Shown here: piece by piece, positions 4,883 through 35,354 of the stretch
Position numbering within the stretch: position 1 is the stretch's first letter
How the letters are laid out: the number at the start of each line of letters is the position of its first letter
Origin: Calothrix anomala FACHB-343
GTDB taxonomy: Bacteria; Cyanobacteriota; Cyanobacteriia; Cyanobacteriales; Nostocaceae
Assembly: GCF_014696435.1 (NCBI RefSeq)
Contig: NZ_JACJQG010000023.1
Location: forward strand, 51,373-115,372
Reading direction: 5' to 3'
DNA length: 64,000 nt
Translations under genes and position numbers: made by a program
Notes under the pieces: model-generated
Seen by the model: the letters and a program-made list of their open reading frames with translations, nothing else
Told to the model about the DNA's origin: nothing
Database searches by the model: none

Positions 4883-7072
4883 TTACCATTGGGAGGACTG
4901 GAGTTGAAAATTTTTAAATGTCACTTCCACAGACATGGGTACTAATTGTACTGCACAAGCTTTTAACTCTGGTTGTAATGAATCTGGGCAAGATTCTGGA
5001 TGAGTCAGGGCGTTAGCTTCCGCCTCGTTTGCCCAAAGTGCGCCCCAATGCATAGGGACAAATACGGTACCAGGGGCGATCGCTTTTGTGACTTTAGCAG
5101 GAAATTTGGCTTTACCGCGACGCGATCGCACTTCTAACAATTGGTTATCTGTAATCCCCAACTTTGCTGCATCACGGGGATGAATCTCGATAAACGGATC
5201 GGGATGCATTTGGCGAATTTTTCCAATCCGTCCAGTACGGGTTTGCGTGTGCCAATGTCCGTATAGGCGTCCTGTAGTCAGTACAAAAGGATAATTGGGA
5301 TCTGGTGGTTCCGCTAATCCCCGTGAGTGATACGCGCCAAACCGCGCCCTGCCATCAGGGGTATGAAAGCGGAGATTTGTGTAGAGGCGCTTTCTTTCAT
5401 GTCTCGGAGTTTCTGCTGCTTCTGGATGAGGCCATTGGGTGGGGCCAAACTCTCGCAATCCTTCATGACTAATACCAGTCATTTCACAAGGGCGATCGCG
5501 AGTTAAGCGGACAAATTCTGCATAAACTTCTGCGGAGTTAGCATAGCTAAATTCTTTGATAAAACCTAATCTCCGTCCAATTTCGGCAAAAATTTCCCAA
5601 TCTGCTTTAGCTTCTCTAGGCGGTTGGCGGAATGCTTGACATAGGGTGACTGTACGCTCGGAATTAGTCATTACCCCAGTTTTTTCACCCCATTGCGCCG
5701 CAGGTAACAGAACGTGAGCGTAAGCAGCCGTTTCCGTGGGATAATAGGCATCTTGATAGATAGTGAAGGGCGATCGCAACAATGCCTTTTTAGTCCGTTC
5801 TAAATCTGGCATACTCACAGCTGGGTTAGTAGCCGCTATCCACAGCAATCCCACTGAGCCATCTTCTAATCCAGTAATCATATCCCACGCCGTTAAACCG
5901 GGATTTGGTGAAATTTGTCCTCGCTTTAAGCCCCAAAAATCCTCAACTTCGGCGCGATGCTGGGGATTTTTCACCAAGCGATAACCGGGTAATAAATGCG
6001 CTAAACCGCCAGCTTCCCGTCCCCCCATTGCATTGGGTTGACCGGTCAAAGAAAAAGGCCCGGCTCCCGGCTTACCAATTTGTCCTGTCATCAGATGCAG
6101 GTTAATAATTGTCCTTACCTTCGCTGTCCCTTCACTGGATTGATTCACACCCATCGACCACAAAGACAACACCCTCTCGGATTGACTCCAATAACGCGCT
6201 GCTGTTTCCAAATCTGCAACGCTAATACCGCAACGATCCGCCACGATATCGGGAGCATAATGACGAATCACCTCTGCATAGGCAGGAAAGTTACTCGTAC
6301 AGTCGTCAATAAACCCAACATCAATAGCATTCCCACGCATCAATAGGTAAGCAATACCATTTAACAAGTCAATATCTGTACCTGGACGAATAGCTAAATG
6401 CAAATCGGCTGCTTCTGCGGTGGGTGTGCGTCGAGGATCGACAACAATCATTTTGACTTTGCGATTTTTCTTGTGATACTTCGCCAAGCGATTGAAAACT
6501 ATCGGGTGACATTCAGCAGCATTCGTACCAATTAAAAATGCACAGTCGGTTAACTCTAAATCGTCGTAACAACAAGGAGGGCCATCTGCGCCAAAGCTTT
6601 GAATGTAGCCAGATACAGCGCTAGACATACATAAACGCGAATTGGCATCAAAATTATTACTACCCAGACATCCCTTCATCAGTTTTTGGGCGATGTAATA
6701 ATCCTCCGTTTGGAATTGTCCAGAACCGTACATACAGATAGCTTCTGAACCTTGGGTGTAACGCACCGTTTGAATGCGCTTGGTAATGATATCAAACGCT
6801 TCATCCCAACTGACGCGCCGAAACTCTTGCTCTAAAGAGTCTCGCACCATTGGGTAATGGAGCCTATTTTTATCTAACGACTCAGCGATAGTTGCACCTT
6901 TAACACAAACCATCCCCTGACTAGATGGGTGCGCTTTGTCTCCTCGCACGCGCCAAATTGGAGTTCCTTGACTATCCCGATTAGTCGCTTTTCCTGGTTG
7001 CGCTGGGGGCGAAACTTCTAACCCACAGCCAACGCCGCAGTAAGGACAAAGGGTTTTGGTAAATTCACTCAT
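4883..7072 (-). CDS. narB: Ferredoxin-nitrate reductase
   Basis: A 729-residue molybdopterin oxidoreductase that reduces nitrate to nitrite in the cytoplasm with electrons from ferredoxin. The N-terminus holds the [4Fe-4S] ligands Cys9, Cys12, Cys16 and Cys56 (CPYCGVGC and GMVCVKG). The central domain has the [11 protein letters not shown] and [10 protein letters not shown] segments that bind bis-MGD, and the C-terminal molydopterin dinucleotide-binding domain contains [18 protein letters not shown]. Length and motifs match cyanobacterial NarB. It follows nrtP by about 100 bases filled with short tandem repeats, so nrtP-narB are probably one transcript from the NtcA promoter upstream of nrtP. 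Confidence 0.96.
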
Positions 7073-28137: not shown

Positions 28138-28663
28138 AGTGCCGATAATGTAGACAATCTCAGAACAAAGATCATCCCATGCTTAGGCGAAGATGTGAAA
28201 ACTCAATTTTCTCTCTCTGTGTTCTCTGCGCCTCTGCGGTGCAAAAATAATTTATTAAGACTGATGCATTCAGAGAAAATACAAAATCTATGTCATACCA
28301 ATTCAATATAAAAATGAATATACAGTGATTTTCAGGTAAATAGACCACATTGTAGGGGCACGGCACCAGTAAGATTATTGTATATGCGAGAATATTATGG
28401 ATGCCGTGCCCCTACAGCCAATATATATCAGGGTTGTAAGTTATTCTTTCAGACTAGTCACAAAAATGAGTAAATCATGATAATCTACTACTTTAGATAG
28501 ATTACTTAATTATGATAATCATATGTGTTGCTGTCAATTTGCCAAATTTAAACCAAAATTTTTTAAAAAATAAATTCTTTAATCAAAAGAAAATGATAAT
28601 TAATCAAGAGAGAACTAACATCAGTAATAATTAAACTTAATTATAAAAAATAATTAAATATTA
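28138..28663. other. Divergent gap between aspA and the CHAT gene
   Basis: Contains a CTCTGCGCCTCTGCGGT arm (28225-28241) related to the nrtC-nrtD hairpin, the palindromic repeat at 28322-28420, and AT-rich DNA with two copies of ATGATAATC (28477 and 28513). The latter flank an inverted pair TAATCTA/TAGATTA and could be operators of the CHAT gene; this is a guess. Confidence 0.45.
28322..28420. repeat. Dispersed palindromic repeat, copy A
   Basis: A perfect 14-bp inverted repeat (28352-28365 with 28402-28415; arm GTAGGGGCACGGCA) plus a conserved left flank ATTTTCAGGTAAATAGAC. A second copy with the same flank and loop lies at 46803-46900. Both carry TATTGTATAT.CGAGAA in the loop. Confidence 0.8.
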
Positions 28664-31414
28664 ATGGCTAAAGTAGTTAAACTCAATATCATTAATGGTG
28701 ATTTTGCGCAAGGTTTTACAGTCCAGGTGGAAATTCGTCAGAAAGGTAGACTCATTGATCCAAAAATAGCAAATCTTCCTCCTGCACCTGATATTCCAGA
28801 GCTTTATCATAATTTCCAAGAAATTTATAATAATTTAGATCAGCCTTTTTTAAACTTTCAAATTCCCCCAGATCAGAACAACGAATTTCCTACCATAGCA
28901 GAGTGTAGAGAAGCTGCTCGAAGATTGGAAATGCGTCTCGAAGAGTGGTTTGATCATCCTTCTATGAAAACATTGCGTATTTACATAGAACAACACCTAA
29001 GAAGAACCGAACCTATTCAGGTCATTTTCCAGACCGACAATGAAATACTAAAAAAGCTACCTTGGCATTTATGGGATTTATTTGAAATTTTTCCTAAAGC
29101 TTGGTTCTCCCTAAGTACAACTTTTAATATACATCAACCTAATATACATACACATTCTAAACCACTAAAAAGACCTGTAAGAATTTTAGCTATTTTGGGT
29201 AGCGATCAAAATACCGATCCAAATACCAATAATTTTGAACGTGATGGAAACTTATTCAACAATTTACCTGGTGCAAGAGTCAAAAAATTACCAACACCAA
29301 CGCGCCAAGAACTTTGTCAAGAATTACAAAATGAGTACTCTTGGGATATTGTCTGTTTTTCAGGACATAGTTGGAGTATAAATACAAACAATGATGGACA
29401 ATTGCAGATCAACCCTAGCGATAGTCCATCTATGAGAGAGTTAAGAAATGCATTTAGAGGCGCTATACGAAACGGCTTAAAATTAGTAATTTTCAGTTCT
29501 TGCGATGGTTCAGGTTTAGCAAATAAATTGATGCAATTTCAAATTCCCCAAGTAATTATTATGCGGGAACTGGTACCAGATGAAGTCGCATATCAATTTT
29601 TAAAAGAATTCTTGCAGTTATTTTCCCAAGGTGAATTGTTTTATCTAGCTGTGCGCAAAGCACAAGAGAATTTACAGAGTATAGAAAATCAATATCCTTG
29701 CGCTTCCTGGCTACCTGTTATTTATCAAAACCCCGCAGCAAAGTCGCCAGTTTGGCCTCACTTGATTAACATTTATAAGCTCAACCGTGGCATAAAAAAG
29801 CTTCGGCGTAATATCAATTTAGCGATATATATCTTTTTATTTTTGATATGCTGCTTTATAGTTATCTTATTTCCTCAAATAAAATGTACACTAAGTAATA
29901 ATTGCTCAGTAAAGATTCCCAATCCTCCTTCTACCCCTACAGTTACAGCAGTTTCACCAATTTCTACTGCAAATATTAACCCTAACGAACAATTCTTTAG
30001 TCGTGGTCAAAAAACATTAATCTCACCAGATCAAAAGTATACAAATCGTGAAAAAGAGCAAGGAATTAATTCATTTGAAAATAAACAGTGGAAAGCAGCT
30101 ATTGATTATTTTAGTAAATATTTAAAATTACAAAAAAATGATCCGGAAACACTAATTTATCTAAATAATGCTATAGCAGAGCTAAGAAAGGAACAAAAAA
30201 ACCAAAACTATATTACAATTGCAGTAAGCGTTCCTATGACTAAAGACCTTGAGCGTTCTGAAAACATTTTACGAGGAGTCGCCCATGCTCAAAGCAGACT
30301 AAATTGCGGTAGTGTGGATAATATTATTAATGTTATTAAAAATGATAGCAGTACAGCTTTGAATACCTGCAAAGGTGGTATTAATAAGCAACCATTAGTA
30401 GTTGAAATAGTAGACGATCAGGATAACGCAGACAATGTAGCCAAACTAGCAGAAAATATTATTAAACTTGATAGGAATATATTAGCAGTTATCGGTCACT
30501 ATTCGAGCAAAACTACTATTGCATCTTTAAAGATATATAATAATAAAATTGTTGTCATTTCTCCTAGCAGTACCTCTTCTGACATAAATGAGTATGGGTT
30601 TCAAATTTTTCGCACTACTATTAATGACAATAGTAGTGCAAAAATTTTGTCTAGTTATGTTCAGGAAAGATTGAGATCATTAAATCAAAGCGAGCGTCAA
30701 AATTTAAAATTTATTGTTGCATATACTAAAGGTAATCCTTATAGCGACTCTTTAAAAAAGACTTTTCAAAATTCGTTTGCGTTAGCACAGTATGATGCAG
30801 AATTCGATCTGTTGACTCAAAAACCAAAAGATATTCTAAAACAAATAGAAACCAATACGCCGACTGTTTTACTACTGATTACTTCTGCTAAAGGTACAAC
30901 TTTAGATAATGCATTAACCATTATTGAGCAAGTTTCTCAGATTCCAAATCCAAATCTGATACTAATAGGTGGAGATTCTTTATACCACAGTAAAACCAAG
31001 AAAAAGACTGTAGAAAAAAGTAATTTGGTGCTTGCTGTTCCTTGGCACTCAGATGACGAGCAATTACCTTTCAATAGAGAGGCTAATAATCTTTGGGGTA
31101 ATAATGTAGAAGTAGACTGGCGAAACGCTATGGCGTATGATGCAACTCAAGCAATTATTGCAGGTTTAACGCAAATAAACTTACAATACAATCCCCAAAT
31201 GCTTAAAACATATCGCCAGCAGCTTAAAGACAAACTTTTGCAACCCGATGATTCTTCAATTCAAGGTGCTACGAAACCAGTAATATTTACTCAATATGGC
31301 GAACGTATACGTAACGATACGAATTCAGATGAAATTGGGGTATTGGTAAAAGTTAAATGTACTAGTAATAATTCCTGCAAGTTTGTTAAATATAATCTGC
31401 CCAAGCAACCTTGA
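28664..31414 (+). CDS. CHAT protease - transmembrane - TPR - ABC-type ligand-binding fusion
   Basis: A 916-residue protein with an unusual order of parts. Residues 1-160 are an N-terminal region often found ahead of CHAT domains in cyanobacteria. About 170-355 form a CHAT (caspase-like HetF/TPR-associated) protease with His235 in CFSGHS and Cys280 in IFSSCDGSG. A single membrane helix spans about 385-405 with a basic preceding segment (KKLRRN), so CHAT is cytoplasmic. Then comes one TPR-like hairpin (about 463-505) and a periplasmic-binding fold of the branched-chain amino-acid receptor type (about 516-870; ITIAVSVPMTKDL, AVIGHYSSKTT). It is distinctly AT-rich. I infer a ligand-gated membrane protease. 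Convergent with the DUF1822/sigma operon. Confidence 0.85.
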   Translation: MAKVVKLNIINGDFAQGFTVQVEIRQKGRLIDPKIANLPPAPDIPELYHNFQEIYNNLDQPFLNFQIPPDQNNEFPTIAECREAARRLEMRLEEWFDHPSMKTLRIYIEQHLRRTEPIQVIFQTDNEILKKLPWHLWDLFEIFPKAWFSLSTTFNIHQPNIHTHSKPLKRPVRILAILGSDQNTDPNTNNFERDGNLFNNLPGARVKKLPTPTRQELCQELQNEYSWDIVCFSGHSWSINTNNDGQLQINPSDSPSMRELRNAFRGAIRNGLKLVIFSSCDGSGLANKLMQFQIPQVIIMRELVPDEVAYQFLKEFLQLFSQGELFYLAVRKAQENLQSIENQYPCASWLPVIYQNPAAKSPVWPHLINIYKLNRGIKKLRRNINLAIYIFLFLICCFIVILFPQIKCTLSNNCSVKIPNPPSTPTVTAVSPISTANINPNEQFFSRGQKTLISPDQKYTNREKEQGINSFENKQWKAAIDYFSKYLKLQKNDPETLIYLNNAIAELRKEQKNQNYITIAVSVPMTKDLERSENILRGVAHAQSRLNCGSVDNIINVIKNDSSTALNTCKGGINKQPLVVEIVDDQDNADNVAKLAENIIKLDRNILAVIGHYSSKTTIASLKIYNNKIVVISPSSTSSDINEYGFQIFRTTINDNSSAKILSSYVQERLRSLNQSERQNLKFIVAYTKGNPYSDSLKKTFQNSFALAQYDAEFDLLTQKPKDILKQIETNTPTVLLLITSAKGTTLDNALTIIEQVSQIPNPNLILIGGDSLYHSKTKKKTVEKSNLVLAVPWHSDDEQLPFNREANNLWGNNVEVDWRNAMAYDATQAIIAGLTQINLQYNPQMLKTYRQQLKDKLLQPDDSSIQGATKPVIFTQYGERIRNDTNSDEIGVLVKVKCTSNNSCKFVKYNLPKQP

Positions 31415-31450
31415 CACTAAATTTATCCGCCAAATCTGCGCTAAATATTA
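31388..31450 (-). pseudogene. Relic 3' end of a second DUF1822 gene, antisense over the CHAT stop
   Basis: On the minus strand this segment reads FSADLADKFSVKVAWADYI then TAA. The live DUF1822 gene nearby ends YIQFIFSADLGDKFSVNVTL and so on, and the DNA (31414-31450 versus 31560-31596) is nearly identical over about 37 bases. The relic has no upstream coding continuation (a hairpin follows), so it is a fragment of another DUF1822 gene left by recombination. Confidence 0.7.
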
Positions 31451-31451
31451 T

Positions 31452-31484
31452 AGATCCCCGACTTCATTAAGAAGTCGGGGATCT
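31452..31484. terminator. Hairpin between convergent CHAT and DUF1822 genes
   Basis: A perfect 14-bp stem, AGATCCCCGACTTC (31452-31465) with its complement (31471-31484), 5-base loop. There is no strong T run, but its place between two converging stop codons suits a bidirectional terminator. The CCCCGACT core also appears at 63902-63909. Confidence 0.65.
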
Positions 31485-31512
31485 GAACATATTGTTATTT
31501 ACATTTCAAATT

Positions 31513-32655
31513 TTAAACAACAAAAAACTCAGTTACACTAGCATCAGCCAAAGTAACATTGACACTAAATTTATCGCCTAAATCTGCACTAAATATGAAC
31601 TGAATATAATTGTCTTCTTTCTTAGCTGTAACCGGATAAAAAATGTTACCAGCTTCATCTAAACCCAATAATTTTAAACCTGCGGGTACAAAAGATTGGC
31701 TACCTATTGGATAAACTCGCAGTAGAATGGATCTTCTAGTATTAGGTGTGGGTAAAACTGCAACCATCAGCGCCACTGGAATACCTCCTAAACGCATACT
31801 TATATCAATTATTCTTCTTGCGCCAGCATCGGGATGTTGAGGGTTTATTTGCCATAAAAGTTCAGCTGCTTTCCAGCGAATCTGCTCATCTTGAGTAGAT
31901 TCTATAAGTTGGCTTAAGGCTGTACTAGGTTCTAATTCAGCTAGAGAAATATTTTGTGATTGTTTAGCGTATAACTGTGCAATCAAACGCCTAATACTGT
32001 GAGTATCATTGGGATCAACTCTTGCAGATGCTATGCTACGAAACCGAAAAGCCATACTAGGTGTTTGATTGCGAATAAGTTCTTCTACAGCTAGCCAACC
32101 TGCATCAAAAATATTATTTAACCAATTTTCTAAATGCACAATTTTGGGGATTTCTGCAATCTGTTGTAATTGTTTTCTTTTCTCGCTTAAATAATCAGGA
32201 AATTCCTCTAGGGAATGCAAATCTTTTAAAGGTACATTTTCTTGTTCTGGTGCTAATTGTGGTAAAAATCCTAGTAGTGTGGCTTGTCTTAAAGATGAGT
32301 TTAGCTGTACTGCTACATAACCTATGCGATTCTCCCAAGCTTCAGAGGGTATTGTGAAAACTTCGGCATGTGTTAATACAGGGCGACATTCAAATTTACC
32401 CAGATTCTTGATATTTAAATCCGCTATATCTAGAAATTTTTGCACTATCAAATTACGACTATCGCTATTTTCCCAATCGCTTTCAAATCCCATGCATTTA
32501 AAGTAATGTTCTACTGCATATATAGCCAAAGTATTAAGATAAACTTGTTTGGCTTTTTCTGGTTGATGATGTTGTTTACTGTACTGTTGTGCTAAGGAAT
32601 GTGCGCTAAAAGAAAGAGGTACGGTAAAGGTTAAAGTTTCAGCAGAGTTAGTCAT
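31513..32655 (-). CDS. DUF1822 family protein
   Basis: A 380-residue soluble protein of the cyanobacterial DUF1822 family. It begins with FTVPLSFSAHSLAQQYSKQ and YLNTLAIYAVEHYFKCMG, typical of the family, has RNLIVQKFLDIADLNIKNLG and ends with a beta-rich segment containing LPTPNTRRSILLRVYP. I start at ATG 32655, which has GAGG 7 bases upstream; an ATG eight codons earlier lacks one. Function unknown. In my recollection DUF1822 genes often sit beside sigma-70-like and CHAT or CHASE2 genes, as here. It follows the sigma-like gene by about 48 bases on the same strand. Confidence 0.85.
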   Translation of the reverse strand: MTNSAETLTFTVPLSFSAHSLAQQYSKQHHQPEKAKQVYLNTLAIYAVEHYFKCMGFESDWENSDSRNLIVQKFLDIADLNIKNLGKFECRPVLTHAEVFTIPSEAWENRIGYVAVQLNSSLRQATLLGFLPQLAPEQENVPLKDLHSLEEFPDYLSEKRKQLQQIAEIPKIVHLENWLNNIFDAGWLAVEELIRNQTPSMAFRFRSIASARVDPNDTHSIRRLIAQLYAKQSQNISLAELEPSTALSQLIESTQDEQIRWKAAELLWQINPQHPDAGARRIIDISMRLGGIPVALMVAVLPTPNTRRSILLRVYPIGSQSFVPAGLKLLGLDEAGNIFYPVTAKKEDNYIQFIFSADLGDKFSVNVTLADASVTEFFVV

Positions 32656-32703
32656 GATTAATCCTCGGTTAATTGTCATTGATTTTGTAAATTACATCGA
32701 TAC

Positions 32704-33441
32704 CTATAATTTTTCCTGAAAATATGGCTTTAATCGTTCCAATTCTCTGGAGAAAAAACTAGTAAGGGTGGTATTAGGTAAATTTAACATTTTGGAAAGA
32801 TAAGTCATTTTTATACCTTTTATATATAAAGCTTTAGCAATATATTGAAAAGTTAGCTCTGGTTTGCCCTTGATATGCTTTTGAAATTGATTATCTGGGT
32901 CTTTTATTAGCAGTTCTCTAAGAAAATCACAGTTGGATGCTAATTTTTTTTGTGCTAATTGTTCTTCATAATAAATTGATTTTTCTAATTCAGAATCAAC
33001 CACGAATTCTTCTAATCCATCAAAAGATATGATTTGTACTGGTAAGTTTCGATGTTGAGATTTTGAATGGGGCATGAATTTGAAGCCTGTCCGTGAGTAT
33101 TTTTTTTGAACATCAGAAAACTTATTCTTCAAAATGCCAATAACCCAACTAATAAATCGCTGCTGTTGAGGATTATAACTATCAATACCTTTGCTAATTG
33201 CAATTAAAGTTTCTTGCAGTGCTTCATCAAATAGGTCTTGAAACTCATTTCGTAACTTTGGATATTTTGCTCTGAGACTTGTTTTAAGTCTTGTAGTTTC
33301 TGATGGTTGTTGAATTGCTTGCAGCAGCTTATTCAAAGCCAGCTGTCTTTTAGGAGTTAGAGGTGGTTGTTTTTGAACTTCTAGGGCGAGAAGTTTTAAT
33401 TCATCATTAAATGGCTCATCAAAGGTCATAATAGTCATCAT
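32704..33441 (-). CDS. Sigma-70-like RNA polymerase sigma factor, group 4-like
   Basis: A 245-residue protein. Residues about 70-115 resemble sigma region 2 (NEFQDLFDEALQETLIAISKGIDSYNP, RFISWVIGILKNKF) and the C-terminus has an HTH of region 4 type (MTYLSKMLNLPNTTLTSFFSRE). The order and size fit the cyanobacterial sigma-like proteins that accompany DUF1822. Whether it binds core polymerase is not shown by sequence. The start is a double ATG at 33441. It heads the operon with DUF1822, which it would presumably work with or be controlled by. Confidence 0.8.
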   Translation of the reverse strand: MMTIMTFDEPFNDELKLLALEVQKQPPLTPKRQLALNKLLQAIQQPSETTRLKTSLRAKYPKLRNEFQDLFDEALQETLIAISKGIDSYNPQQQRFISWVIGILKNKFSDVQKKYSRTGFKFMPHSKSQHRNLPVQIISFDGLEEFVVDSELEKSIYYEEQLAQKKLASNCDFLRELLIKDPDNQFQKHIKGKPELTFQYIAKALYIKGIKMTYLSKMLNLPNTTLTSFFSRELERLKPYFQEKL

Positions 33442-34241
33442 CCGGGGCCAGATAAAAGTTTTAATGCCTTATATACTTAGGTATACCCACGTTGGTTGAA
33501 CCTCTAATGTCTAATCTGGAGATGTGGAAGGGTTTGACGCAAAAGCCTAAATTTTTAATATAAGTTTACAAATTGAGGTAGAGGGGATGTAGTTACACTG
33601 CTGTTGGCGTTGAGGTGTAACAAAGTACTCACATCAAATTATCTACAGCAGCGACAAATGGGTAGAAGAGAACCAAACCCAACATATACAAAGCATTAGG
33701 GGTGTTGGGTTTTGTACCCTGAATCAATCAACGACTACCCTGAATCAATCAACCAATACAGTTCAGCTAACGATAATTGTAGGTTGGGTAGAGCGTAAGC
33801 GAAACCCAACATTATCGCGGCTTTGTTGGGTTTCGTTCCTCAACCCAACCTACGCAGCTACGCAGCTACCCGAATCAATCAACCGGAAAAGTCTCTCCCA
33901 TAATTCAGTTGACACTTATAAGTAGTGTCAGAGCCAAATATATAATTTGCTTTGTTCTCGCCAAGTTAGCGAGCAAAAATTTAGGTAATTTGCGTAAAAG
34001 CTTTGAAGTTTTTCGGAATTAGATATTGAGAGGGTAAGCAAGCATTACTTTCTCAATATCGCTGATGAGTTTTCTCGGAGGACGATTTTACACTGACGTT
34101 GAGTAATTAACAAAAATTTACTCTAGTCAAATAACTAAAAAATCTGTTCTTTTGCGTAAAAGTTAGAGAATACTTCAGAAGTAAATAACAAGACAATCAG
34201 CAAGTCTTACATTGATAATTCGTGAATCCAGGGTAAATATT
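33442..34241. other. Divergent gap between sigma-like and trypsin-like genes, repeat-rich
   Basis: No gene. It contains two GTTGGGTTT palindromic elements (33675-33715 and 33780-33852), three copies of ACCCTGAATCAATCAAC or variants (near 33717, 33737 and 33869), and a hairpin at 34025-34063 with arms GATATTGAGA/TCTCAATATC upstream of the protease gene. Confidence 0.5.
33780..33852. repeat. Palindromic GGTTGGGT..GTTGGGTTTCG repeat
   Basis: The arm TAGGTTGGGTAGAGCG at 33780 and its counterpart ending CAACCCAACCTA at 33852 form an imperfect hairpin about 73 bases long. This element type is widespread in cyanobacterial genomes. A related smaller palindrome, AAACCCAACA..TGTTGGGTTT, lies about 65 bases to the left. 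Confidence 0.75.
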
Positions 34242-35354
34242 ATGTTGTCAAAAGCGCAACTACGATTTCAAACCTTCCTGTGGTTATCTGCATTATTTAC
34301 TACTCTAATTCCCTTTAATACCGCTAAATCTCAAACTACTGAAACTGGACAATATCAAGTAGCAACAAAGTCTAGTCAGGCGAAAACAGTTAAGAATAAT
34401 CCAGCTAAATTATCACCAGACAATTTAGTAGCGGAGACTGTTAAGCCATCAGTAGTCCGAGTAGTGTTAGGCTGTGAAGCTAAAGTTTACTTGCCAAAAA
34501 ATGGCAAAGTTTATAAATTAAGCCAAATCATTAGTCATGGTTCTGGTTTTTTTGTGCATCGAAGTGGCACTATTGCTAGCAATGCTCATGTAACACAGTT
34601 CAGCGCAGAGGAATGTCAATACATCTTAAAGTCAGAATTATCTGACCAATTAAAGACTGATAAAGAGAATTTAGAAGATGTTGAAAAAGATTTGAAGTGG
34701 ATTGAAAATAAACCTATAAACTTAGTTTATTTACCTAATGGTGAGAAACTTCCTTTCAAAATAATTATTTCTGGCGATCCTGTGGGTGAAGGTAAGGATG
34801 TTTCTATTATTCAGGTTAATTTAAAAAATGCTCCTGCTCTTAAGCTAGCAGATTCTGAGCAAGTCAAGCTGATGGATCAAGTAATAGCTGTTGGTTATCC
34901 AGGTGTAGTAGAAAGACTTCCGGTTGATTGGAAAGAAAATTCTTTTCAAGAAGCTACTTTTACTAAGGGAATAGTTTCTGCCAAAAAAAACCTCGATCCT
35001 GATATACCTGTGATTCAAATTAGTGCTGCTGCTGCACCTGGAAATTCTGGCGGGCCAGTATTAAATGAACAAGGTGAAGTTATTGGTATGGTAACTTTTG
35101 GTGTACCTGACAGCAATAATTATATCTTTCTGTTCACTAGTAATACTATTCAAGAGTTCCTCCAAAAAGCTGGTATTATTAACGAACAAAGTTTAGTTAA
35201 TCGACAATATCAGGAAGGTCTGCAATTTTACAATCAAGGAAATTACTCACAAGCATTGCAGCGATTTAAGTTAGTTAAAAGTCTTTTTCCGCAACATTCT
35301 GAGGTGGAAAAGTTTCTGAAAAATTGTCAAGAAATTATAGCTAGCAAAATCTAA
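34242..35354 (+). CDS. Exported trypsin-like serine protease with C-terminal TPR
   Basis: A 370-residue secreted protease of the HtrA/S1C type without a PDZ domain. A signal peptide covers about residues 1-32 (FLWLSALFTTLIPFNTAKS). The catalytic triad is visible: His in ASNAHVT, Asp in GKDVSIIQV and Ser in APGNSGGPVLN. The last 50 residues form one or two TPR-like helices (YQEGLQFYNQGNYSQALQRFKL). I start at ATG 34242; a TTG 30 bases upstream would extend the signal peptide oddly. It diverges from the sigma/DUF1822 operon and shares low GC with the CHAT gene, which suggests, without proving, a common system. Confidence 0.85.
   Translation: MLSKAQLRFQTFLWLSALFTTLIPFNTAKSQTTETGQYQVATKSSQAKTVKNNPAKLSPDNLVAETVKPSVVRVVLGCEAKVYLPKNGKVYKLSQIISHGSGFFVHRSGTIASNAHVTQFSAEECQYILKSELSDQLKTDKENLEDVEKDLKWIENKPINLVYLPNGEKLPFKIIISGDPVGEGKDVSIIQVNLKNAPALKLADSEQVKLMDQVIAVGYPGVVERLPVDWKENSFQEATFTKGIVSAKKNLDPDIPVIQISAAAAPGNSGGPVLNEQGEVIGMVTFGVPDSNNYIFLFTSNTIQEFLQKAGIINEQSLVNRQYQEGLQFYNQGNYSQALQRFKLVKSLFPQHSEVEKFLKNCQEIIASKI

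What the first reader, a model, noticed from the sequence alone, without database searches (positions are those of the whole stretch)
28664..35354. Candidate sensor-protease system: CHAT-TM-ligand-binding fusion, sigma-like factor, DUF1822, exported trypsin
Seen: a CHAT protease (His235, Cys280), one membrane helix, a TPR and a branched-chain-type ligand-binding domain in one protein; convergent to it a sigma-70-like and DUF1822 operon; next to it an exported serine protease with a TPR. All are AT-rich compared with flanking core genes. Known: CHAT domains are caspase-like proteases, used for example in HetF and in Craspase; periplasmic-binding folds sense small molecules. Inference: an outside ligand gates cytoplasmic CHAT cleavage of a target, perhaps the sigma-like protein or DUF1822, changing transcription. 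I know of no described function for the DUF1822/sigma pair.
Basis: partly seen in the sequence, partly recalled or inferred. Interest (0 to 1): 0.82.

Follow-up and report, generated by a model that had tools for sequence, protein, structure and literature searches.

The report
Membrane caspase-like receptor controlling a sigma factor
Many cyanobacteria carry a gene set in which a membrane receptor bearing a caspase-like protease sits next to a sigma factor and a protein that probably holds that sigma factor inactive; the layout was noted in print in 2021, and this report adds evidence for how it may work.

Summary
Kaur et al. 2021 described it in silico as EACC2–caspase neighbourhoods, so this is a new member of a known kind; its convergent layout is a local inversion. 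New here: in a lineage of ~2-Mb genomes of the same phylum a DUF1822 domain heads a membrane protein encoded directly before a sigma gene (22 of 22 complete loci), the classical membrane anti-sigma layout. DUF1822 is therefore most likely an anti-sigma factor, and the system probably works like the Csx29–Csx30–CASP-sigma arm of Craspase, with a membrane ligand sensor instead of guide RNA. No binding or cleavage was tested. A conserved Arg in DUF1822's disordered linker is a candidate cut site, but its link to CHAT fails a tree-corrected test. The trypsin is weakly linked.

The parts
28664..31414 (+). EACC2-like N-domain + CHAT protease (His235, Cys280) + one membrane helix (about 386-404) + leucine-binding-protein-like sensor domain (about 570-839); 916 aa
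31513..32679 (-). DUF1822 protein, 388 aa: alpha+beta N-domain (about 18-176, proposed sigma-binding), disordered linker with AFRFR (210-214), HEAT-like helices (226-278), Ig-like C-domain (287-388); proposed anti-sigma factor
   Evidence: anti-sigma role inferred
32704..33441 (-). ECF-like sigma factor, 245 aa (regions 2 and 4)
33533..33543 (-). element B (TTTGCGTCAAA, one mismatch to TTTGCGTAAAA) upstream of the sigma gene; a degenerate HLR1-like element A (2 mismatches) lies just before it, about 130 bases before the sigma start
33989..33999 (+). element B copy pointing towards the trypsin gene
34151..34161 (+). element B copy pointing towards the trypsin gene (its 12-mer form occurs 7 times in the genome, reversed control 3)
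34212..35354 (+). exported trypsin-like serine protease with a weak C-terminal TPR; likely start is the ATG at 34242 (by eye); possible output gene, membership in the system doubtful
31395..31448 (.). 54-base, 85% identical copy of the 3' end of the DUF1822 gene (31543-31596), running across the CHAT stop codon: probable scar of the rearrangement that turned the CHAT gene round

Best explanation
A one-receptor transmembrane signalling system. The CHAT protein sits in the membrane with its EACC2-like and CHAT domains in the cytoplasm and an amino-acid-binding-type domain outside. DUF1822 holds the sigma factor inactive through its N-terminal domain. Ligand binding outside switches on the CHAT protease, which cuts DUF1822, most likely in the disordered linker between its two domains (candidate site AFRFR/S, after Arg214), and frees the sigma factor, which then activates its own operon and other genes. 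Shown: the genes, the conserved catalytic pair, the topology signals, the very common operon, joint inheritance, the membrane anti-sigma-like layout in another lineage, the disordered linker with a conserved Arg. Inferred: sigma binding by DUF1822, protease activation by a ligand, DUF1822 as substrate, the cut site, the regulon.
For: Operon: sigma-like gene just upstream of DUF1822 in 66 of 74 (DUF1822-ranked), 16 of 19 (own genome) and 77 of 80 (named) cases; EACC2-CHAT just downstream on the same strand (under 1 kb) in 45 of 74, 11 of 19 and 70 of 80, a few of these short or truncated ORFs such as L028 and L155. In the own genome 14 of 15 strong EACC2-CHAT matches lie in a DUF1822 locus; the 15th starts at a contig edge. 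In 85 trios with a fam1 sigma gene the distances of the three proteins correlate (Spearman 0.63-0.71; largest of 300 permutations for any pair 0.16). In a family of ~2-Mb genomes of the same phylum, an 816-1294 aa protein has an N-terminal DUF1822 domain, a long acidic linker, a membrane helix and (in L266) a TonB_2 C-terminus, and is followed 12-106 bases on by a sigma-like gene in 22 of 22 complete loci. The CHAT receptors carry sensors: CHASE2 in 33 and Peripla_BP_6 in 20 of 54. Precedent: CHAT protease Csx29 cuts Csx30, an inhibitor of the ECF-like CASP-sigma (PMC10028731, passages). Predicted DUF1822 (mean pLDDT 91) has two well-folded domains; residues 208-217 are below pLDDT 50, and column 214 is Arg or Lys in 128 of 156 filled rows of 174.
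Against: No direct evidence of sigma-DUF1822 binding or of any cleavage. Arg/Lys at 214 goes with CHAT in raw counts (103 of 129 against 22 of 42, Fisher p 0.001; 3 of 174 rows dropped for lack of flank) but not within either sigma family (p 0.41 and 0.12) nor after correction for descent (14 independent pairs: same way 3.0, other way 0.6, no difference 10.4). Of 74 rank-sampled DUF1822 ORFs 27 have no EACC2-CHAT in the stretch read, so DUF1822 and sigma may work without it. Some DUF1822-CHAT loci (L027, first ORF of L112, L113-L116, L120) lack a detected sigma gene upstream. DUF1822 showed no clear match to a known anti-sigma fold, and its N-domain alone could not be searched.
Confidence: 0.5

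Rival explanations
1. EACC2 conflict system as Kaur et al. proposed: the receptor senses an invader or damage, the caspase-like domain activates itself and kills or disables the cell, and the sigma response is a side arm.
For: Kaur et al. 2021 section 9; some members carry nSTAND1+WD40 instead of a membrane sensor; many paralogues per genome (19 DUF1822 genes here).
Against: 33 of 54 members carry CHASE2 and 20 of 54 a small-molecule-binding domain, which suits environmental signals; one scan of the viral collection found no relative of DUF1822; no PADLOC match for CHAT, DUF1822 or sigma.
Confidence: 0.2
2. DUF1822 is a co-activator or adaptor of the sigma factor rather than an inhibitor, and CHAT cuts something else or itself.
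For: The sigma-DUF1822 pair occurs without EACC2-CHAT (27 of 74 rank-sampled DUF1822 ORFs have none in the stretch read); an Ig-like C-domain is a common adaptor fold (general knowledge).
Against: The architecture in the ~2-Mb genomes is that of a membrane anti-sigma factor; several EACC2-less loci have another protease nearby: exported TPR-CHAT (L102, L103), double trypsin (L132, L134), caspase C14 (L165).
Confidence: 0.22
3. The exported trypsin is a true fourth part, either an output of the sigma factor or a periplasmic activator of the receptor.
For: Two exact copies of element B (seen upstream of fam1 sigma genes) precede the trypsin, the only two exact 11-mer matches in 64 kb; in L132, L134 and L135 a trypsin-like gene follows sigma-DUF1822 directly (Pfam for L132 and L134; L135 judged from its ORF start); 2 of 9 trypsin-orthologue places read are near module genes; the closest orthologue (L256) also has a one-mismatch element B.
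Against: 7 of 9 trypsin-orthologue places have no module gene in the stretch read, some of them short contigs; only 1 of 9 has element B with at most one mismatch (background 2.3% per piece); allowing one mismatch, the window's 6 matches are not above chance (shuffles: mean 3.6, 17 of 100 reach 6); the L132/L134 trypsins are of another, two-domain type.
Confidence: 0.2
4. The sigma factor itself, not DUF1822, is the protease target (one of the reader's options).
For: Adjacent and co-inherited.
Against: Destroying the regulator would switch the operon off; no linker motif was sought in the sigma family; the solved precedent cuts the inhibitor.
Confidence: 0.05

Closest known systems
EACC2-caspase systems with ECF sigma and DUF1822 (Kaur et al. 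2021, eLife, PMC8195603)
   Same: Constant N-terminal domain plus caspase-like domain, variable C-terminal sensor, neighbouring ECF sigma and DUF1822 genes; prediction of sensing followed by proteolysis and transcription.
   Different: They call DUF1822 a TPR protein; the model here shows an alpha+beta domain, HEAT-like helices and an Ig-like domain. The section read does not name DUF1822 an anti-sigma factor. In the window the CHAT gene is inverted.
Craspase transcription arm: Csx29 (TPR-CHAT), Csx30, CASP-sigma (PMC10028731)
   Same: CHAT protease, a third protein and an ECF-like sigma factor; in Craspase the CHAT protease cuts the sigma inhibitor. NCBIfam's CAS_III-E_sigma model matches 5 of 18 upstream sigma-like genes (best 2.7e-7), as do many general sigma models.
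   Different: No RNA guide was seen (not searched for); the switch would be a membrane ligand sensor; no sequence relation between DUF1822 and a solved protein was found.
RseA/DegS and similar membrane anti-sigma systems (recalled, and cited in PMC10028731)
   Same: [quoted passage not shown] the DUF1822-TM protein of the ~2-Mb genomes has the same layout.
   Different: Here the protease domain is cytoplasmic, caspase-like and part of the receptor itself; DUF1822 in the window shows no membrane helix in its predicted fold.
HetF (cyanobacterial CHAT protein)
   Same: CHAT domain; weak match 2.5e-4 to the HetF model.
   Different: 19.4 bits against a cut-off of 1200.

Membership tests
EACC2-caspase / ECF sigma / DUF1822 system (Kaur et al. 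2021) | Constant N-terminal alpha+beta EACC2 domain followed by a caspase-like domain | tested here: inconclusive
   A conserved N-terminal stretch precedes CHAT (G12, G17, F18, V20, P39, W51 in 90% or more of 54 proteins), but no EACC2 profile was on hand to match it and its fold was not predicted.
EACC2-caspase / ECF sigma / DUF1822 system (Kaur et al. 2021) | Variable C-terminal sensor domains | tested here: met
   CHASE2, Peripla_BP_6, nSTAND1+WD40; pentapeptide repeats at the N-terminus of one.
EACC2-caspase / ECF sigma / DUF1822 system (Kaur et al. 2021) | Neighbouring ECF sigma and DUF1822 genes | tested here: met
Craspase (type III-E CRISPR) | Cas7-11, crRNA array and Csx30 | not tested
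   No CRISPR search was run; by eye no Cas protein among the ORFs listed for 24-40 kb; PADLOC matched only the trypsin among four proteins.
Craspase (type III-E CRISPR) | DUF1822 is a Csx30 homologue | tested here: inconclusive
   No PDB sequence match for the DUF1822 profile; Csx30 not among the rows of the fold comparison.
ECF sigma / anti-sigma pair | Sigma regions 2 and 4 present | tested here: met
   Sigma70_r2 in the window copy, just over cut-off; TIGR02937 in 12 of 18 and Sigma70_r4 in 8 of 18 own-genome upstream genes; both regions visible in alignment A6.
ECF sigma / anti-sigma pair | Partner encoded next to sigma; membrane form with N-terminal partner domain | tested here: met
   (22 of 22 complete loci).
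ECF sigma / anti-sigma pair | Direct binding and inhibition of the sigma factor | not testable with these tools
   No complex prediction or experiment was possible.
HetF | Over the NCBIfam HetF cut-off | tested here: not met
   19.4 bits, cut-off 1200.

The most novel reading that the evidence does not exclude
A new class of bacterial transmembrane signalling: a receptor whose own cytoplasmic part is a caspase-like protease cuts a soluble anti-sigma factor (DUF1822) when an outside ligand binds, freeing a sigma factor; the same protease-inhibitor-sigma logic appears under RNA control in Craspase. DUF1822 would be a new anti-sigma fold, already present in the common ancestor of photosynthetic cyanobacteria and the lineage with ~2-Mb genomes, where it is membrane-anchored.
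Probability: 0.4. Interest if true: 0.82.

Novelty: new member of a known kind. Interest (0 to 1): 0.55.

Why it matters
The operon is common and multiplied in filamentous cyanobacteria (19 DUF1822 genes and 15 strong EACC2-CHAT matches in this genome), yet the paper searches made here showed no experiment on it. If DUF1822 is an anti-sigma factor cut by a receptor caspase, a domain of unknown function gets a testable role, the Craspase protease arm gains a CRISPR-free counterpart, and a whole set of cyanobacterial sensors becomes readable through one reporter.

Tried and rejected

Papers. Section 9 of PMC8195603 was read whole, with passages elsewhere; passages only of PMC10028731, PMC11633204, PMC10907252 and PMC9679502; the rest are search listings. 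'EACC2' gave three papers, one relevant; 'DUF1822' occurred in two of the 30 papers.
Full report
WHAT IS THERE. The four genes exist as stated, with the expected Pfam domains. The CHAT protein has His235 and Cys280, a hydrophobic helix at 386-404 preceded by KKLRR, so its N-terminal part should be cytoplasmic, and an outside domain of the leucine-binding-protein family (PDB 4mlc, 4gnr, 1usg and others at 1e-6 to 1e-5, aligned over about 100-135 residues). The TPR claim is weak. The trypsin has triad motifs and, by eye, a signal peptide. The block is AT-rich. The window lies in a 9.24-Mb genome; G001, listed as same genus, has a first contig of 8,527,291 bases, the length of Calothrix brevissima NIES-22 NZ_AP018207.1, so the host is probably a relative of that nostocalean strain (inference).

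THE OPERON. The genome has 19 DUF1822 genes including the window copy (20 matches, two of them in one gene). Of 17 matches to the EACC2-CHAT part, 15 are strong and two weak; 14 of the 15 lie in a DUF1822 locus (up to about 7.4 kb away) and the 15th begins at base 11 of its contig. I then read three sets. (a) 73 loci holding 74 DUF1822 ORFs, the top-ranked non-own places of a search of 117 genomes of the phylum (81 had a match); two places of that rank range were left out here because they are in set b. (b) Seven loci chosen by CHAT similarity from a search of 59 genomes, the own one included. (c) 80 named loci found with a DUF1822 query close to the window copy (the best 80 of 126). Some places occur in two sets, for example L088 and L168. 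Sigma-like gene directly upstream: 66 of 74, 7 of 7, 16 of 19 own, 77 of 80. EACC2-CHAT under 1 kb downstream on the same strand: 45 of 74, 6 of 7, 11 of 19, 70 of 80; convergent: 0 of 74, 1 of 7 (L088), 1 of 19 (the window), 1 of 80 (L168, the same place as L088); anywhere in the stretch: 47 of 74, 7 of 7, 14 of 19, 74 of 80. These counts include a few short ORFs (L028 327 aa, L155 173 aa). The sigma families were built by iteration on the upstream genes themselves (40 + 49 of 96 upstream ORFs, linked by 3 shared members), so their sigma nature rests on NCBIfam and Pfam for the own-genome set: TIGR02937 in 12 of 18, Sigma70_r4 in 8 of 18. In 85 trios with a fam1 sigma gene the protein distances correlate at 0.63-0.71 (pairs under 0.15 DUF1822 distance left out), against at most 0.16 in 300 permutations per pair.

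THE CONVERGENT LAYOUT is secondary. L089, the next orthologue (CHAT 43% identical), is co-directional, while the window and L088/L168 (48%) are inverted. In the window a 54-base, 85% identical copy of the DUF1822 3' end runs across the CHAT stop codon, a likely scar of the event.

SENSORS. Of 54 CHAT proteins (the window and 53 of 62 full-length ones in the named loci, close duplicates left out), 33 match CHASE2 and 20 Peripla_BP_6; own-genome paralogues also show nSTAND1+WD40, or pentapeptide repeats in front. H235 and C280 are invariant in 54 of 54.

DUF1822 AS ANTI-SIGMA. The phylum search also found DUF1822 matches in 41 genomes of one family, f38, of about 2 Mb (at least three listed f38 genomes have none). 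The family is probably Gastranaerophilales (inference; unnamed, not verified). I read 23 of these loci. In the 22 complete ones the protein is 816-1294 aa: N-terminal DUF1822 domain, acidic linker, a hydrophobic helix (one in 21 of 22; L276 shows three windows, two overlapping), and it is followed 12-106 bases on by a 184-198 aa sigma-like gene in 22 of 22; the 23rd locus is cut by the contig end. Pfam gives DUF1822 3.5e-10 in L267 and TonB_2 4.5e-7 in L266, and Sigma70_r4 1.9e-9 and 2.2e-7 in the two sigma genes tested; L266's DUF1822 domain was scored by the genome search (45 bits) but was not reported by the whole-protein scan. That is the layout of a membrane anti-sigma factor, and it places sigma binding in the DUF1822 N-domain (inference). 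The window DUF1822 folds with confidence (pLDDT 91, pTM 0.68, 53 sequences) as an alpha+beta N-domain, HEAT-like helices and an Ig-like C-domain, not a TPR protein.

THE PROTEASE STEP. In Craspase a CHAT protease cuts Csx30, which binds and inhibits an ECF-like sigma factor (PMC10028731, passages). The same three kinds of protein stand together here. Several EACC2-less sigma-DUF1822 loci have other proteases near: exported TPR-CHAT, TPS-CHAT, double trypsin, caspase C14. Between the DUF1822 domains lies a linker with pLDDT below 50 (208-217) and a partly conserved AFxFR motif: column 214 is Arg in 119 and Lys in 9 of 156 filled rows (of 174), columns 210, 211 and 213 hold A, F and F in about half to three fifths of filled rows. 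Raw counts tie Arg/Lys to CHAT (103 of 129 against 22 of 42), but the tie is not supported within sigma families or by independent pairs. It is a candidate site, no more.

PROMOTERS. An HLR1-like element (ATGTAAAGTTTTGTAAA in the sense direction) lies within 250 bases upstream of fam1 sigma genes: two mismatches or fewer in 19 of 40, against 1 of 48 fam2 sigma genes and 19 of 288 other genes; in the named set 28 of 65 against 14 of 237. Loci are related, so such tests overstate. A second element, TTTTGCGTAAAA, follows about 10-12 bases on in many, by eye; a pattern for it matched 8 of 65 sigma upstream regions against 1 of 237 others. The window has degenerate copies of both before the sigma gene and two exact 11-mer copies of the second before the trypsin; with one mismatch allowed its 6 matches are not above chance. 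The exact 12-mer occurs 7 times in the genome against 3 for the reversed control. This may be autoregulation or RpaB control; it is not settled.

THE TRYPSIN. Of 59 genomes searched, the own one included, 8 have a match, 7 of them relatives; of the 10 non-own places listed I read 9. Two lie near module genes (L261, L263), and one, the closest, has element B with one mismatch (L256).

VERDICT. A real, widespread, already named gene set; the window is a rearranged member. The added claim, that DUF1822 is an anti-sigma factor and the likely substrate of a receptor caspase, is plausible and directly testable.

Noticed in passing
L266, L267, L270-L289: DUF1822-like domain at the head of membrane proteins with an acidic linker, followed directly by a sigma-like gene, in about 2-Mb genomes of the same phylum.
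   Followed up: yes
upstream of fam1 sigma genes, e.g. L168, L142, L189: Two conserved elements: an HLR1-like ATGTAAAGTTTTGTAAA and TTTTGCGTAAAA 10-12 bases on, often followed (by eye) by a TAGA block about 25 bases further.
   Followed up: partly
window 28351-28416: Two directly adjacent 33-base inverted repeat arms (79% complementary) starting TGTAGGGGCACGGCA, like a small palindromic mobile element, about 250 bases before the CHAT start.
   Followed up: no
window 33667-33884: Direct and inverted repeats (TGTTGGGTTT..., CCTGAATCAATCAACC) in the sigma-trypsin intergenic region.
   Followed up: no
L168 12570-13535 (= L088): A second, shortened EACC2-CHAT copy in tandem next to the inverted CHAT gene, and a short ORF with a weak trypsin-profile match (6e-5) at 6307-6570 upstream of sigma.
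   Followed up: no
L132, L134, L135, L165, L026, L102, L103: sigma-DUF1822 pairs near other proteases: two-domain trypsins, caspase C14, TPS-CHAT exoprotein, exported TPR-CHAT (L135 judged from its ORF start only).
   Followed up: partly
L024, L036: EACC2-CHAT followed by a DUF928 gene (Pfam) and long exported-looking ORFs; possible secreted outputs of the system.
   Followed up: no
L027, first ORF of L112, L113-L116, L120: DUF1822-CHAT pairs with no detected sigma gene directly upstream.
   Followed up: no
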